Assembly: GCA_017631275.1 (NCBI GenBank) | Contig: JAGBTQ010000003.1 | Location: 280,158-344,157, forward strand | DNA length: 64,000 nucleotides | Direction of reading: 5' to 3' | Origin: Alistipes sp. | Lineage (GTDB): Bacteria; Bacteroidota; Bacteroidia; Bacteroidales; Rikenellaceae | In this document: piece by piece, positions 18,476-55,920 of the stretch | Layout: each line of letters opens with the position of its first letter | Position numbering within the stretch: the stretch's first letter is position 1 | Translations under genes and position numbers: made by a program | The notes under the pieces: model-generated | What the model was told of the DNA's origin: nothing | Database searches by the model: none | What the model saw: only the letters and a program-made list of their open reading frames with translations

Positions 18476-18479
18476 CACC

Positions 18480-18824
18480 GCACATGTGCTCTATCGCTGC
18501 CACCTTAGGGTGGGGGAGGAAAGTCCGAGCAACAGAGAGCGCCACGCAAGTTAACGGCTTGATACTCGTGAGGGTATAGTAGCGTAGAAGAAAATAACCG
18601 CCCGCAAGGGTAAGGGTGAGAAGGCGGGGTAAGAGCCCACCGCGAGGGTAGCAATACTCTTCGGCAGTACGTCTCGTGGGTTGCAAGACCATGTATACCG
18701 ACAATTAAGGGTTGCTCGTCCAATGTCGGGGGGTAGGTTGCTAGAGGCGGCAAGTGATTGTCGTCGTAGATAAATGATAGAGGCCCAACTCGTTGGGTAC
18801 AGAACTCGGCTTATAGCGTGTGCA
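18480..18824 (+). ncRNA. rnpB: RNase P RNA (bacterial class A), ribozyme of tRNA 5' processing
   Basis: The strand shows the hallmark conserved blocks of RNase P RNA. GAGGAAAGTCCGAGC, the 5' conserved region that forms half of P4, is at about 18510-18525. ACAGAACTCGGCTTATAG, the 3' half of P4 plus the end of the core, is at about 18800-18816. The ends can pair as helix P1 (GCACA..GCT at 18480-18490 with AGCGTGTGC at 18815-18823). Length of about 345 nt fits the type. Exact 5' and 3' ends are inferred from the promoter and P1. It is flanked by its own promoter and a strong terminator. Confidence 0.95.
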
Positions 18825-18827
18825 AGC

Positions 18828-18864
18828 ATATAGGGGGTGTCCGCAGACACCCCCTATATTTTTT
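18828..18864 (+). terminator. Intrinsic terminator of rnpB
   Basis: A perfect 14-base-pair stem (18828-18841 with 18846-18859), CGCA loop and T run to 18864. About 140 bases without a gene follow before mqnC; they hold only a weak AACCATT/AATGGTT inverted repeat. Confidence 0.95.
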
Positions 18865-26047: not shown

Positions 26048-26428
26048 ATGGCAAATGTACCTGCTAATTTGAAGTACTCTAACGACCACGAGTGGTTGCG
26101 TGTAGAGGGTGATGTAGCTGTTATCGGCATTACTGATTATGCTCAGTCACAGCTTGGCGATATCGTTTTCGTTGACGTTCCTACTGTAGGCGAGACTATC
26201 GAGGCTAACGAGGTATTCGGCTCTATCGAGGCTGTTAAGACCGTTTCTGACGCCTTCACTCCAGTATCTGGTGAGGTTATCGAGTTCAACGAGGCTGTTG
26301 AGGCTGACTCTGCACTTGTAAACAAGGATCCATACGGCGAGGGTTGGTTGGTGAAGATCAAGATGTCTAACCCTGCTGAGGTTGAGGGTCTTTTGGATGC
26401 GGCTGCATACGAGGCACTCATCGGATAA
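26048..26428 (+). CDS. gcvH: Glycine cleavage system H protein
   Basis: 126 residues from the ATG at 26048 ([17 protein letters not shown]), matching the family's usual N-terminus; a longer in-frame ATG at 25991 would add a non-conserved tail. The lipoylation site is the lysine in [11 protein letters not shown] at about residue 64. It carries the aminomethyl group between the P and T proteins. None of the other glycine cleavage genes is adjacent, so this is a stand-alone H protein. Its codons are strongly biased to common ones, fitting high expression. The repeat module described separately begins seven bases after its stop. Confidence 0.94.
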
Positions 26429-26830
26429 TTTGAAAGTGATAAGCCGCAATCTGCGGCACATCTAAAAAAGTTGAGCACCCGAGGCTGTAGGTTTACTACT
26501 ATCCTCGGGTGCTCACTTTTGCGATAAGCCAAATCTAACCCCCCTCTAACAAGAAATCGGTGCGCTGATTGAGGTGGGCAGGGGCATAAGAGGCAAAAGG
26601 GTCAAAAGAGTCCAAAGGGTAGAAAAAATAACCCTTTAAGACCCTTTAGGCCCTTTTATTACCCTTTCTGACCCTTTGATAAGAAAGATGAGAGCGCTTC
26701 GCTCGATGGGTAACGCTTCGCTTGATAGGGGTAATAGGAGCGCTTCGCTCGATAGGACTATGATACCCTCGCCTTATCTTCCCCATCTATCCCATCTTCC
26801 CCATCTATCCCATTCTCTCCTCCCCAAACA
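26429..26830 (+). repeat. Mosaic intergenic repeat, copy A (downstream of gcvH)
   Basis: About 400 bases with no gene but layered repeats. A GTGATAAG module starts at 26436, seven bases after the gcvH stop, and runs into a CCGCA/TGCGG hairpin. A 12-base-pair hairpin with a GCACCCGAGG core follows at 26473-26514. A second module resembling copy C runs from about 26522 to 26580. An inverted set of AAAGGGT/ACCCTTT units fills 26590-26680. Three REP-like GAGCGCTTCGCTC-type palindromes lie at 26692-26704, 26712-26724 and 26738-26750, and a CCCATCTATCCC tract at 26780-26815. Copies B and C are at 37876-38125 and 55725-55920. Confidence 0.75.
26473..26520 (+). terminator. Hairpin terminator within repeat copy A, downstream of gcvH
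   Basis: A perfect 12-base-pair stem GAGCACCCGAGG/CCTCGGGTGCTC (26473-26484 with 26503-26514), 18-base loop and a T run at 26517-26520. The same hairpin, partly decayed, recurs at 37920-37958. Confidence 0.7.
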
Positions 26831-36681: not shown

Positions 36682-37875
36682 ATGAAGAAGACCTATCTAT
36701 TTTTTGCCATGCTTGCGGCAGTGTTTGCTGTGGGCTGTAGCTCAGAGCTCGATAAGGCTATCGACTCGTCGCCACGTGCAGGCGAGCTTCGAGCAATGCT
36801 CGACGAGCTTGATGGCGCAGAGCGTGAGGACATGGAGTTTTTGTTGATTAACATGCTCTCGTCGGACCGCGATAATATGTCGCTTGAGCTGCTCAAGGAG
36901 AATGTTGAGTATGCCAACATCGCTCGTGAGAAGTATGAGTGGGCAAAGGCGCTCCCTAAGGAGGTGTACCAGCGCGATGTGCTTCCGTTCCATGTCGTTG
37001 ACGAGGTGCGCGACGCATGGCGCAAGGAGCTCTACGAGATGTTTGCCCCAGCCGTGGACACTTGCAAGACCATGTACGACGCTGTGTGTGCCGTGAATGC
37101 CAACATTCCTCAGCTCACAGGCGTGCACTATAACACCAAGCGCGAGAAGACTAACCAGAGTCCACGTGAGTCTATGCGTCAGGGCATGGCATCGTGCACA
37201 GGCCTCGCTATCTTGCTTGTTGATGCCTACCGCGCTGTGGGTATTCCTGCACGCTTCGCGGGTACTGCCTCATGGCACGATAACCGTGGTAACCACAGCT
37301 GGACCGAGGTGTGGCTCGATGGCCAGTGGCGCGTTACGGAGTACTACTTCCCATCCCAGCTCGACCACCTATGGTTTATGGCAGATGCCTCAAAGGCGAA
37401 GGCTGAGGACCGCACCTACGCTATCTACGCTACACGCTTTGGTAAGGCCGACGATTGGTTCCCTATGGTGTGGGCAGATGGCGATGTTGAGGGTCGTCCT
37501 ATCGAGGAGCTACCACGCACTATTGGTGCCGAGAATGTCACTGAGCGCTATATCACCCTTGCCTACGAGCAGTACACACGCCATATCGAGGCGGGTACAC
37601 ACACCTTCATCAAGATTGCAGGATATAAGGAGCGTGGCAAGACCGAGCACTCGGAGGATCGTGTAGCCATGGGCGTAGATGTATTCCGTGGCACCGAGCA
37701 GATGGGTGGCGGACTCACGGCCAACGAGCTTCGTGACATGAATGACATGTTCTCAGTTCTAGTGCCTAAGAATACCGAGTATGAGCTTCGCTACTATAAT
37801 GCCAAGGGCGAGCTTCAGACGCAGAAGGTAGTTCTCGGCGAGGAGGAGGTTACCGTTCAGATCTTCCAAAACTAA
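36682..37875 (+). CDS. Transglutaminase-like lipoprotein
   Basis: A 397-residue protein with a lipoprotein signal peptide (cysteine in AVGCSS at residue 19). The transglutaminase core lies at about 165-235: the nucleophile in MASCTGLAILLVDAYRAVGIPAR, the histidine in NHSWTEVW and an acidic residue in RVTEYYFPSQLDHLWF where the family usually has aspartate. A Bacteroidota subgroup with similar blocks may use glutamate there. The C-terminal 120 residues form beta-rich regions. Function in the envelope is unknown. It starts four bases after the cutC stop. Repeat copy B begins seven bases after its stop. Confidence 0.82.
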   Translation: MKKTYLFFAMLAAVFAVGCSSELDKAIDSSPRAGELRAMLDELDGAEREDMEFLLINMLSSDRDNMSLELLKENVEYANIAREKYEWAKALPKEVYQRDVLPFHVVDEVRDAWRKELYEMFAPAVDTCKTMYDAVCAVNANIPQLTGVHYNTKREKTNQSPRESMRQGMASCTGLAILLVDAYRAVGIPARFAGTASWHDNRGNHSWTEVWLDGQWRVTEYYFPSQLDHLWFMADASKAKAEDRTYAIYATRFGKADDWFPMVWADGDVEGRPIEELPRTIGAENVTERYITLAYEQYTRHIEAGTHTFIKIAGYKERGKTEHSEDRVAMGVDVFRGTEQMGGGLTANELRDMNDMFSVLVPKNTEYELRYYNAKGELQTQKVVLGEEEVTVQIFQN

Positions 37876-38160
37876 ATTTCTTGTGATAAGGGGTCATCTT
37901 CGACCTATCCCAAAAAGCTGAGCACCCGAGGCTGTACGTTTGAGTACCATCCTCGGGTAGTCCCTTTGATGGGATAAATGGGATCGCTTCGCTCGATAGG
38001 ATAAATGGGATCGCTTCGCTTGATGGGGATAATAGGACTTTGATGCCATCGCCTTAAATTTTCTATCTTCCCTATCCTCCCTATCTATCCCATTTATCCC
38101 ATCTATCTCATTTATCCACCCTATAAACCTCGTGCAAAGCACACCTTCCACTTACCTATT
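37876..38160 (+). repeat. Mosaic intergenic repeat, copy B (downstream of transglutaminase gene)
   Basis: About 285 bases without a gene. TTGTGATAAGGGG starts at 37881, seven bases after the stop. A decayed copy of the CACCCGAGG hairpin is at 37920-37958. Two GATCGCTTCGCT units lie at 37982-38000 and 38009-38026. A 17-base inverted repeat pairs 37968-37984 exactly with 38087-38103, so most of the region can fold into one long hairpin. The block shares modules with copies A (26429) and C (55725). Minus-strand reading frames across it are repeat translations, not genes. Confidence 0.75.
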
Positions 38161-54482: not shown

Positions 54483-55724
54483 ATGATTCAGAGAAAAGAT
54501 ATAGAGATAATGGCCCCTGTGGGCTCTTACGAGTCGCTTAATGCTGCCATTGCGGCGGGTGCCGACTCGGTATATTTCGGCGTGGAGCAGCTAAACATGC
54601 GTGCTGCCTCATCGGTAAACTTCACGCTCGACGACCTTAGCGAGATTGTGCGCACGGCACATGCTGCGGGTGTCAAGACATACCTCACGGTAAACATCGT
54701 AATCTACGACACAGAGATGGAGGTAATGCGCCGCATTATCGACCGCGCCAAGGCTGATGGCATCGACGCAATCATCGCCACCGACCTCGCTGCTATTCTC
54801 TACGCCCGCCAGGTGGGCATGGAGGTGCATATCTCTACGCAGAGCAACATCTCGAACATCACGGCTGTCGAGTTCTTCTCTAAGTGGGCAGATGTTGTGG
54901 TGCTGGCACGTGAGTTGTCGCTAGAGCAGATTAAGTATATCTCGGAGCAGATTCGTGAGCGCAATATCTGTGGTCCTGCGGGTGAGCTCGTCAAAATAGA
55001 GATGTTTGCGCATGGCGCTATGTGTATGTCGATGTCTGGCAAGTGCTACCTCTCGGAGCATGAGTCGCACCACTCGGCAAATCGTGGCGCTTGCCGTCAG
55101 ATATGTCGTAGAAAGTATACCATCACCGACAAGGACTCGGGCGAGCAGCTCGACATCGACGGTCAGTATGTACTCTCGCCTAAGGACTTGTGCACCGTCG
55201 ACTTCCTCGATAGGTTTATCGACGCTGGCGTGCGTGTGCTCAAGATTGAGGGTCGTGCACGTGGTGGCGAGTACGTGAAGCGTGTTGTGGAGAGCTACAA
55301 CGAGGCACTCCTCCTTATGGAGCGTGGCGAGTATAACCCCGAAAGCGTTGCGCCTATCAAGGAGAAGCTTCGCACGGTGTTTAACCGCGACTTCTGGGGT
55401 GGCTACTACGCTGCACAGAAGATGGTGGAGCACAGTCAGCACTACGGCTCATCGGCAACCCTCAAAAAGGTATACATGGGCAAGGTTACCAACTACTTCA
55501 AGCGCATTGGCGTTGCCGAGGTGTTGGTCGAGGCGTGCGAGGTGAGCAATGGCGATGCCCTCCTATTTATGGGTGAGAAGACCGGCGTTGTGGAGCAGAA
55601 GGCCGATGGTATCATGGTCAAGGAGCTCCCCGTTGATGGAGCTAAGCAGGGCGACTATATGTCGCTTAAGACTGTGAGCGAGGTTAGACGTGGTGACAAA
55701 GTTTACAAAGAGATACCACGATAA
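54483..55724 (+). CDS. Peptidase U32 family protein (RNA hydroxylation type, TrhP/RlhA-like)
   Basis: A 413-residue protein with a TIM-barrel start (IEIMAPVGSYESLNAAIAAGADSVYFG) and the U32 cysteine-rich signature MCMSMSGKCYLSEHESHHSANRGACRQICRRKY region at about 180-212, which presents cysteines for an iron-sulfur cluster. The GRARGGEYVKRVV block follows. Bacterial members hydroxylate tRNA uridine or 23S rRNA cytidine; protease activity is claimed only for a few. It is read together with the upstream prenyl synthase if no terminator exists between. Repeat copy C begins six bases after its stop. Confidence 0.86.
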   Translation: MIQRKDIEIMAPVGSYESLNAAIAAGADSVYFGVEQLNMRAASSVNFTLDDLSEIVRTAHAAGVKTYLTVNIVIYDTEMEVMRRIIDRAKADGIDAIIATDLAAILYARQVGMEVHISTQSNISNITAVEFFSKWADVVVLARELSLEQIKYISEQIRERNICGPAGELVKIEMFAHGAMCMSMSGKCYLSEHESHHSANRGACRQICRRKYTITDKDSGEQLDIDGQYVLSPKDLCTVDFLDRFIDAGVRVLKIEGRARGGEYVKRVVESYNEALLLMERGEYNPESVAPIKEKLRTVFNRDFWGGYYAAQKMVEHSQHYGSSATLKKVYMGKVTNYFKRIGVAEVLVEACEVSNGDALLFMGEKTGVVEQKADGIMVKELPVDGAKQGDYMSLKTVSEVRRGDKVYKEIPR

Positions 55725-55920
55725 TTTGTTGTGATAAGGGGTTATCTTCGGCACCAAGCTCATTGCCCCGAAAGGGGATATACGCCAAGTATACCCCCTT
55801 CCGTGTCAATTTCGACTTGGCACCAAATCTCACCCCTTCTGACAACAAATTGGTGTGCTTAGGTAGGTGGTTAATCTTGGCTATTCCTAACAAATTAGTG
55901 CTTAGGGAGGTGCTATGAAT
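55725..55920 (+). repeat. Mosaic intergenic repeat, copy C (downstream of U32 gene)
   Basis: About 195 bases without a gene. GTGATAAGGGGTTATCTTCGG starts at 55731, six bases after the stop, and is nearly the same as in copy B. A GCCCCGAAAGGGG hairpin follows at about 55764-55778. A later part, CACCAAATCTCACCCCTTCTG to GGTGTGCTTAGG (about 55821-55865), resembles copy A at 26530-26575. The GCTTCGCT palindromes and the CCCATCTATCCC tract seen in A and B are missing here. Confidence 0.6.

What the first reader, a model, noticed from the sequence alone, without database searches (positions are those of the whole stretch)
26429..26580. Repeat family that starts 6-7 nt after the stop codons of three unrelated genes
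Modules beginning GTGATAAG occur at 26436 (after gcvH), 37883 (after the transglutaminase gene) and 55731 (after the U32 gene). In each case the module starts 6 or 7 bases past the TAA stop and lies in the same orientation as the gene. B and C agree over about 26 bases (TTGTGATAAGGGG then ATCTTCG). Later parts are shared pairwise: the CACCCGAGG hairpin in A and B; the AATCTNACCCC then GGTG(C/T)GCT part in A and C. The host genes are not homologous. The fixed spacing to the stop is what makes this more than ordinary intergenic decay: it could be a mobile small repeat aimed at terminators, or a 3'-UTR control element.
Basis: partly seen in the sequence, partly recalled or inferred. Interest (0 to 1): 0.72.

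Follow-up and report, generated by a model that had tools for sequence, protein, structure and literature searches.

The report
Palindromic repeat anchored at stop codons
In a group of gut bacteria related to Alistipes, about a hundred or more unrelated genes per genome end with the same kind of 128-base hairpin-forming repeat placed directly behind the stop codon, and its inside has been swapped between genes and species, as if 3' ends of genes were fitted with exchangeable plugs.

Summary
The three modules are copies of a family of ~128-nt imperfect palindromes (TTTSTTGTGATAAGGGG...CCCCTTCTGACAASAAAT). TTGTGATAAGGGG alone occurs 68 times in the 1.9-Mb genome, its reversed control never. Of 104 first copies examined, 99 lie behind a sense reading frame, 67 with zero bases between stop codon and module. 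At six empty orthologous sites read by eye the protein keeps its length, so modules arrive at the native stop. Stop codons in front of modules are TAA in 82 of 92, against 23 of 43 other window genes. The outer arms vary but stay complementary. Between three close species, 25 of 39 gene-end copies resemble a copy at another gene more than their orthologue. Best reading: a clade-specific small repeat, mobile or exchanged by recombination, acting as a bidirectional terminator and 3'-end structure. No Y1 transposase (0 of 16 genomes) and no integron integrase over the cut-off (0 of 10; no positive control) was found; the mobilising activity is unknown. Rfam gave nothing above threshold; seven paper searches found no description.

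The parts
26430..26557 (+). Copy A behind gcvH: full-length module, CCGCAATCTGCGG type on its left side, CACCCGAGG inner hairpin, degenerate left arm (TTTGAAA), right arm ACAAGAAAT
   Evidence: Covariance-model match G000:C6:306587-306714, 85.2 bits; sequence
26426..26428 (+). TAA stop codon of gcvH, directly in front of copy A
   Evidence: of 15 other same-genus orthologues 12 end at the same residue and 3 (L235-L237) one residue later, by eye
26560..26577 (+). Tail motif GTGCGCTGATTGAGGTGG behind copy A, followed by a repetitive tail to about 26830
   Evidence: such a motif, with up to 3 substitutions, lies within 60 nt of 57 of 135 own copies
37877..37969 (+). Copy B behind the transglutaminase-like gene: left arm TTTCTT, GTGATAAGGGG box and inner hairpin; right half lost into the tail
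   Evidence: Model match G000:C6:318034-318158, 71.5 bits; profile match to positions 1-115 only; end set by eye
37873..37875 (+). TAA stop codon in front of copy B (one A between)
55725..55850 (+). Copy C behind the U32 peptidase gene: arms TTTGTT/AACAAA, TTGCCCCGAAAGGGG-type interior
   Evidence: Model match G000:C6:335882-336007, 75.7 bits; sequence
55722..55724 (+). TAA stop codon of the U32 gene, directly in front of copy C
55853..55870 (+). Tail motif behind copy C (GTGTGCTTAGGTAGGTGG)
   Evidence: by eye

Best explanation
The modules are copies of one small non-coding repeat family of Alistipes/Rikenellaceae, mostly from ruminant gut. A copy is a ~128-nt palindrome with a short outer stem (AATTTSTTGT/ACAASAAATT), two conserved boxes (GTGATAAGGGG and CCCCTTCTGAC) and an exchangeable interior that ends in a strong hairpin, mostly flanked by A and T runs. 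It sits directly behind the stop codon of a gene and serves as that gene's 3' end: in RNA, a hairpin that can stop transcription from either side and shield the 3' end. Copies have come to new genes at the native stop, and interiors have been replaced by interiors of other copies while the arms of the locus often stayed or remained complementary. SHOWN by sequence: family, position, sense orientation, complementarity, presence/absence at orthologous genes, exchange of interiors. INFERRED: terminator function (about 0.6), active mobility rather than only recombination between copies (about 0.6), and how the stop codon is found (unknown; either insertion recognises it or only copies at distance zero are kept).
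For: Copy number and control. Stop-codon anchoring in sense: 99 of 104 first copies (67 at 0 nt, 24 at +1..+12, 7 using the module's own TGA, 1 at +49); mirror control at the right end 26 of 104, scattered. TAA in 82 of 92 against 23 of 43 (Fisher p 1e-5). Arms: third position complementary in 94 of 116 own copies (maximum of 10,000 shuffles 74) and in 149 of 171 others (maximum 105). Alignment of 27 copies: 94.5% of cells paired, 86 cells changed on both sides, covariation score 0.242, none of 500 shuffles as high on these three. Empty and filled sites with the same protein length. Exchange: 25 of 39 gene-end copies closest to a non-orthologous copy; of 87 own pairs with at least 98% identical interior 46 have different arms (two random copies share an arm with chance 0.255). 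Terminator-like: A4 left and T4 right in 92 of 125 full copies (mean 3.8, maximum 10 in 200 shuffles); next co-directional gene at median 197 nt against 15 nt for other gene ends; hairpin plus T-tract in 47 of 95 copies against 14.0 in shuffles.
Against: No mobilising enzyme was identified: Y1 transposases in 0 of 16 genomes, integron integrases in 0 of 10 at the curated cut-off (where no control genome rings over the cut-off either); other transposases and reverse transcriptases were not searched. No clean empty/filled pair with both flanks conserved and a target duplication was seen; sites differ over much of the 3' region. No transcript data. The strict hairpin-plus-T rule fails in 48 of 95 copies. 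The share of convergent neighbours is no higher than at other gene ends (52 of 91 against 86 of 156). In one search pairs with a change on both sides (13; 18 of 500 shuffles as high) are less clear and further pair types (23; 303 of 500) not raised. Many of the genomes whose orthologues lack a module lack the whole family. Complementary arms can also arise without selection, by template switching inside quasi-palindromes (recalled, not searched).
Confidence: 0.6

Rival explanations
1. Ordinary intrinsic terminators homogenised by gene conversion: an old set of 3' hairpins, never mobile as a unit, kept alike by ectopic recombination between copies; the zero distance reflects short 3' UTRs.
For: Terminator-like build and location at ends of transcription units; interiors exchanged between loci.
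Against: Orthologues of the same genes mostly lack a copy, by eye: 2 of 16 gcvH loci, 2 of 16 U32 loci (one cut by a contig end) and 2 of 30 transglutaminase loci carry one. Part of this is because many of these genomes lack the family, but the transglutaminase gene also lacks a copy in the seven relatives known to be rich in modules (G011, G020, G021, G024, G074, G098, G134), so copy B arrived anew or was lost many times. Bacterial perfect inverted repeats peak at +50 to +80 nt behind the stop (PMC13155455, passages), not at 0.
Confidence: 0.25
2. MITE-like transposon whose target is simply TAA, with purifying selection removing all insertions except those at stop codons.
For: TAA precedes TTTSTT in 64 of 67 zero-distance own copies and in 123 of 205 copies of other genomes, tandem copies included; TAG and TGA hosts are rare.
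Against: 43 window gene ends without a copy hold on average 1.53 TAA per 60 nt behind the stop, yet 64 own copies lie at the stop's TAA and only 8 behind a further TAA, all within 4 nt; if each TAA were equally open, 64 of 72 has P 2e-28 (assumes that those 60 nt are free). Tandem second copies are preceded by TTA in 18 of 33 and by TAA in none. No target duplication seen.
Confidence: 0.15
3. Orphan attC-like recombination sites: a tyrosine recombinase acts on the folded single strand and exchanges interiors or 3' ends.
For: A conserved base of the hairpin with a variable but palindromic interior and a place behind the stop codon, as in integron cassettes (recalled).
Against: No integron integrase over the cut-off in 10 genomes; the weaker hits also ring in 14 of 14 control genomes and are taken to be Xer-like. 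The recalled attC core (RYYYAAC/GTTRRRY) is not visible in the arms, by eye. The three window hosts are ordinary genes, not a cassette array.
Confidence: 0.05
4. REP/BIME family moved by a RAYT.
For: High copy number, palindromic, extragenic, partly in tandem (13 of 103 clusters).
Against: No PF01797 protein in 16 of 16 genomes; length ~128 nt instead of 20-40; no GTAG or CGTC at an end (definition from PMC3733652, passages).
Confidence: 0.03

Closest known systems
REP / BIME elements with RAYT transposases
   Same: High-copy extragenic palindromes, proposed roles in termination and mRNA stability (PMC3733652, abstract and passages)
   Different: 20-40 nt with GTAG/CGTC ends and, for GTAG types, a Y1 transposase; here ~128 nt, other ends, no Y1 protein found
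Bacterial MITEs (RUP, Correia/NEMIS, YPAL/RU-2)
   Same: Non-coding, under 200 bp, mostly with terminal inverted repeats, high copy number (PMC2229807, passages)
   Different: No target duplication shown; placed at stop codons in sense; interior and arms often recombined; no parent IS known
Uptake-signal pairs used as terminators in Neisseria and Pasteurellaceae
   Same: A genome-wide repeated sequence forms hairpin terminators behind genes (PMC1852404, abstract and passages)
   Different: Those are signals of about 9-11 nt in generally 1,000 or more copies; here a 128-nt nested palindrome in the low hundreds
attC sites of integrons
   Same: Hairpin behind the stop codon with a variable palindromic interior (recalled)
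   Different: No integron integrase over the cut-off, no cassette array, no attC core by eye
Intrinsic terminators
   Same: Inner hairpin flanked by A and T runs
   Different: Ordinary terminators are not a shared 128-nt sequence family with complementary outer arms at zero distance from the stop

Membership tests
REP/RAYT | Y1 (PF01797) transposase in the genome | tested here: not met
   0 of 16 genomes, own genome (87.5% complete) included; the control rings in 5 of 14 named genomes (own alone)
REP/RAYT | 20-40 nt with a GTAG or CGTC end | tested here: not met
   ~128 nt; ends TTTSTT and AASAAAT; definition from passages of PMC3733652
MITE | Terminal inverted repeats | tested here: met
   Whole 6-nt arms complementary in 76 of 116 own and 128 of 171 other copies; shuffle maxima 52 and 82
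MITE | Target site duplication at filled against empty sites | tested here: inconclusive
   Empty sites found, but much of the 3' region differs, so ends cannot be matched
MITE | Parent insertion sequence supplying the transposase | not tested
   Only the Y1 and integron integrase families were searched
Integron attC | Integron integrase in the genome | tested here: inconclusive
   TIGR02249: 0 of 10 genomes over the cut-off, weaker hits in all 10 and in 14 of 14 controls; no control genome over the cut-off, and hits were scored in separate pieces
Intrinsic terminator | G+C-rich hairpin followed by a T run | tested here: inconclusive
   47 of 95 by a strict script rule against 14.0 in five mononucleotide shuffles; the same rule finds one within 150 nt of 20 of 72 other gene ends. 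A4 left and T4 right in 92 of 125, mean 3.8 in shuffles
Intrinsic terminator | RNA 3' ends at the hairpin | not testable with these tools
   No transcript data
Rfam families | Match at or above the gathering score | tested here: not met
   Window: only RNase P; 8 loci with copies: best 24.5 bits to ctRNA_pGA1, threshold 45

The most novel reading that the evidence does not exclude
A mobile nucleic-acid unit addressed to stop codons: it replaces the 3' end of a gene (stop plus terminator) by its own stop context and bidirectional terminator without changing the length of the protein, through an unknown activity that recognises the end of translation or the transcript 3' end. It is built as socket and plug: locus-bound complementary arms and an interior that is replaced between the two conserved boxes.
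Probability: 0.3. Interest if true: 0.85.

Novelty: new variant of a known kind. Interest (0 to 1): 0.7.

Why it matters
Small repeats are known to collect behind genes, but a family placed at zero distance from the stop codon of at least 67 genes of one genome, absent from many orthologues and with exchange of interiors between loci, was not found in the papers searched. It offers natural presence/absence pairs to measure what a 3'-end module does to termination and mRNA level. It also poses a clean question: how does DNA movement find, or how does selection keep, exactly the stop codon.

Tried and rejected
Kink-turn (box C/D-like GTGATAA...CTGA) was considered and dropped: no three-base bulge, and 13 of the 27 aligned copies have CTAA. 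A target made of pre-existing TTTSTT was suggested by L153/L175 but is not supported by the six empty sites read by eye, where the native sequence lacks it; L175 may be a scar. The idea that TAA is part of the unit fits first copies but not tandem copies (0 of 33). Free assortment of arms and interiors was my first reading and is too strong: 41 of 87 pairs with near-identical interior share the arm, against 0.255 for random copies, so arm and interior are partly linked. Uptake signals: only 3 of the 6 octamers in the window lie outside the modules, 1.85 expected in all. Mobility by phage or plasmid: no hits with one pattern in viral contigs and one copy in phage and plasmid records. Rfam: nothing above threshold. 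Literature: seven searches gave no description of this family; most papers of subscription journals are not held.

Limits of counts: one search scored only 150 of 665 candidates and at most 85 per genome, so copy numbers are floors; matches include opposite-strand shadows; one search covers 41 genomes only. The 137 own copies come from fetched stretches of 237,210 bases, chosen because they hold a match, not from the whole genome. Three of the first 30 loci were left out of the alignment (L003 cut, L005 with a different right arm, L022 truncated). In one search, 75 of 371 copies were dropped (cut, partial or without a recognisable box); further collapsed identical flanks (118 to 116, 178 to 171). 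In one search, five of 104 first copies had no sense frame of 60 codons or more: three are cut by contig ends, one is a partial match, one (C24:44681) is unexplained. A first version of the closest-copy count used too narrow a list of orthologues and stopped with an error; one search replaces it. 'EMPTY' rows (25) include divergent and second copies and one tRNA site; those that I count as truly empty gene ends by eye are L151, L160, L163, L352, L353 and L354. Some genome-contig loci are the same genomes as G074 and G134 (L146, L189, L219: 100% rows). Stop-codon counts for other frames of the stretches (TAA 50, TAG 51, TGA 33) may include antisense frames, so the window genes were used for the test; a hand-made list of 43 window genes gives TAA 24, TAG 17, TGA 2.

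Full report
What was checked. The window is G000:C6:280158-344157 of a 1.916-Mb, 32-contig genome, 87.5% complete. There the 13-mer TTGTGATAAGGGG has 68 exact copies and its reversed control none. TTTNTTGTGATAAG with up to two mismatches has 345 sites against 68 for the control. Twenty-seven of the first 30 loci gave elements with both ends, were aligned and made into covariance model R1. R1 scored 150 of 665 candidates in the own genome and matched 149; after I removed 33 opposite-strand shadows by hand these are 116 distinct places in 103 clusters.

Anatomy. A full copy reads TTTSTT-GTGATAAGGGG-interior-CCCCTTCTGAC-AASAAAT, about 125-129 nt. An outer stem, a three-by-three internal loop, a second stem and an apical hairpin with a GTAC...GTAC (in two copies ATAC...GTAT) top are common to the alignment. 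Interiors come in several types (CACCCGAGG, GACCCCTCGGG, GCCACCAATGGG, TTGCCCCGAA and others). Of four copies folded, some give one long hairpin and others smaller stems on the same outer stem. Copies also stand in tandem in the same orientation at a period of about 130 nt; 33 own copies are followed by another. Behind 57 of 135 own copies a tail motif like GTGCGCTGATTGAGGTGG follows within 60 nt, and then fast-changing repetitive tails (by eye).

Structure. In the 27-copy alignment 94.5% of cells pair, 86 cells are changed on both sides, and the covariation score is 0.242 against 0.097 in shuffles, with none of 500 shuffles as high on these three. Pairs with a change on both sides are 13 (18 of 500 shuffles as high), and the number of further pair types is not raised (303 of 500). 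On a larger set the arms are the clearest signal: the third arm base is complementary in 94 of 116 own copies (maximum of 10,000 shuffles 74) and in 149 of 171 copies of other genomes (maximum 105). Complementarity ends 7-8 bases outside the GTGA box, that is at the AA in front of TTTSTT, which in first copies is the end of the stop codon.

Position. Own copies that are not themselves behind another copy number 104. Of these, 99 stand behind a sense frame of at least 60 codons: 67 at zero distance from the stop codon, 24 at +1 to +12, one at +49, and 7 in which the gene reads into the module and stops at its TGA. The mirror test at the right end gives 26 of 104, scattered over offsets. For frames of at least 150 codons the stop is TAA in 82, TGA in 8 and TAG in 2 of 92; 43 window genes without a module have TAA 23, TAG 18, TGA 2. 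Fisher p is 1e-5, or 2.9e-8 without the six TGA stops that lie in the module. Tandem second copies are preceded by TTA in 18 of 33 and by TAA in none, so TAA is the gene's stop rather than a fixed part of the unit. Downstream TAA triplets are common (1.53 per 60 nt behind 43 window gene ends) but hardly used: 8 copies against 64 at the stop (P 2e-28 if each TAA were equally open). A plain TAA target with free 3' UTRs therefore does not explain the position.

Gain and exchange. Orthologues of the window genes in the same genus mostly lack a module, read by eye: 2 of 16 gcvH loci, 2 of 16 U32 loci (one cut by a contig end) and 2 of 30 transglutaminase loci carry one, with one more doubtful. Many of these genomes lack the family altogether (14 of 25 same-genus genomes have no R1 match), but the transglutaminase gene also lacks a module in seven module-rich relatives (G011, G020, G021, G024, G074, G098, G134). 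For gcvH and U32, G011 has a module of another type at, or two bases behind, the stop. Twenty module sites of G134 were compared with G098 and G074. Among the 36 orthologous pairs of this trio with a module in both, 9 are at least 90% identical and 27 are not, although the 300 bases in front are 91-98% identical. In 25 of 39 gene-end copies the closest copy in the sample is at another gene; adding more copies of other genes could only raise this number. Six gene ends read as truly empty (L151, L160, L163, L352, L353, L354); in each at least one filled relative makes a protein of the same length, while for L160 two other filled relatives are one codon longer. In L352 and L353 the empty stop is TAG where G134 has TAA, and in L354/L315 the last two codons and the stop are the module's own. 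The empty sites L151, L160, L352 and L353 carry a compact terminator-like hairpin; L163 and L354 do not by the same rule.

Plug and socket. Of 87 own pairs of copies whose interiors are at least 98% identical, 41 share the six-base left arm and 46 do not; two random copies share it with chance 0.255. Arm and interior are thus partly linked, but half of the recent copies of an interior stand in other arms, while left and right arms match each other. In the trio, 17 of 27 exchanged pairs keep the left arm of the locus (pairs are not independent). The clearest case is L312 against L342: the rare arms TTTAGC/GCTAAA with different boxes and interiors. Interiors thus seem to be replaced inside the arms.

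Function. The modules stand at ends of transcription units: the next gene is convergent in 52 and co-directional in 39 cases, the latter at a median distance of 197 nt against 15 nt for other gene ends of the same stretches; the convergent share is not raised (86 of 156 at other gene ends). A4 on the left and T4 on the right occur in 92 of 125 full copies, against a mean of 3.8 and a maximum of 10 in 200 shuffles. A strict script rule finds a hairpin plus T-tract in 47 of 95 in sense and 30 of 95 in antisense, against 14.0 in shuffled copies, and in 20 of 72 other gene ends. This fits a bidirectional terminator but is not proof. The complementary outer arms are not needed for termination at the inner hairpin; they point to a role as DNA hairpin, in read-through RNA, or to template-switch repair of the palindrome (recalled).

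Distribution. R1 matched 11 of 41 genomes, all of the window's genus (own included; 11 of 25), and none of the 16 genomes of other families (divergent forms could be missed). No copy was found in viral contigs, phage or plasmid records.

Known systems. REP/RAYT membership was tested and not met, integron attC is not supported but the integrase test had no positive control, and MITE membership is open (arms met, target duplication not shown, parent not searched). Uptake-signal terminators (PMC1852404, abstract and passages) are the nearest functional analogy. Papers were seen as search listings, abstracts or passages only.

Noticed in passing
26578-26830 and 37970-38112 in the window; tails of L306-L355: Behind the modules lie fast-changing tails built from short repeats followed by their inverse complement (GGGATAAATGGGATCGCTTCGCTCGATGGG with CCCATCTATCCC, TTTAGGGAATTTAATGAG and GACCAGAGAGACC types, by eye). 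At many of the sites compared they differ between close species at the same gene.
   Followed up: partly
L153:3917-4254 against L175:5622-5773: A module stands directly behind the terminator T-tract of a tRNA-Leu gene in one genome and is absent in a relative with about 92% identical DNA; a second case lies behind a terminator-like hairpin at G000:C21:82794.
   Followed up: partly
G000:C11:63277, C14:80910, C2:4542, C11:11197, C5:41275; L314, L316: A remnant of a left arm (such as TAATTTCTTG or TAATTTGCCGTG) precedes a complete module, as if a module had been lost or replaced and its left arm left behind.
   Followed up: no
L311, L326, L343: In one gene the start of a module is read as the last codons (Asn-Phe-Ser, then TGA), and relatives have the same residues followed by a TAA and another module, so modules may add C-terminal residues.
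   Followed up: no
18478-18829: Bacterial RNase P RNA (RF00010, 221.6 bits).
   Followed up: no
G000 contigs C2, C5, C17, C23, C32: Several contigs of the assembly end or begin inside or within about 150 bases of a module, as expected if the repeat breaks short-read assembly; the true copy number may be higher.
   Followed up: no
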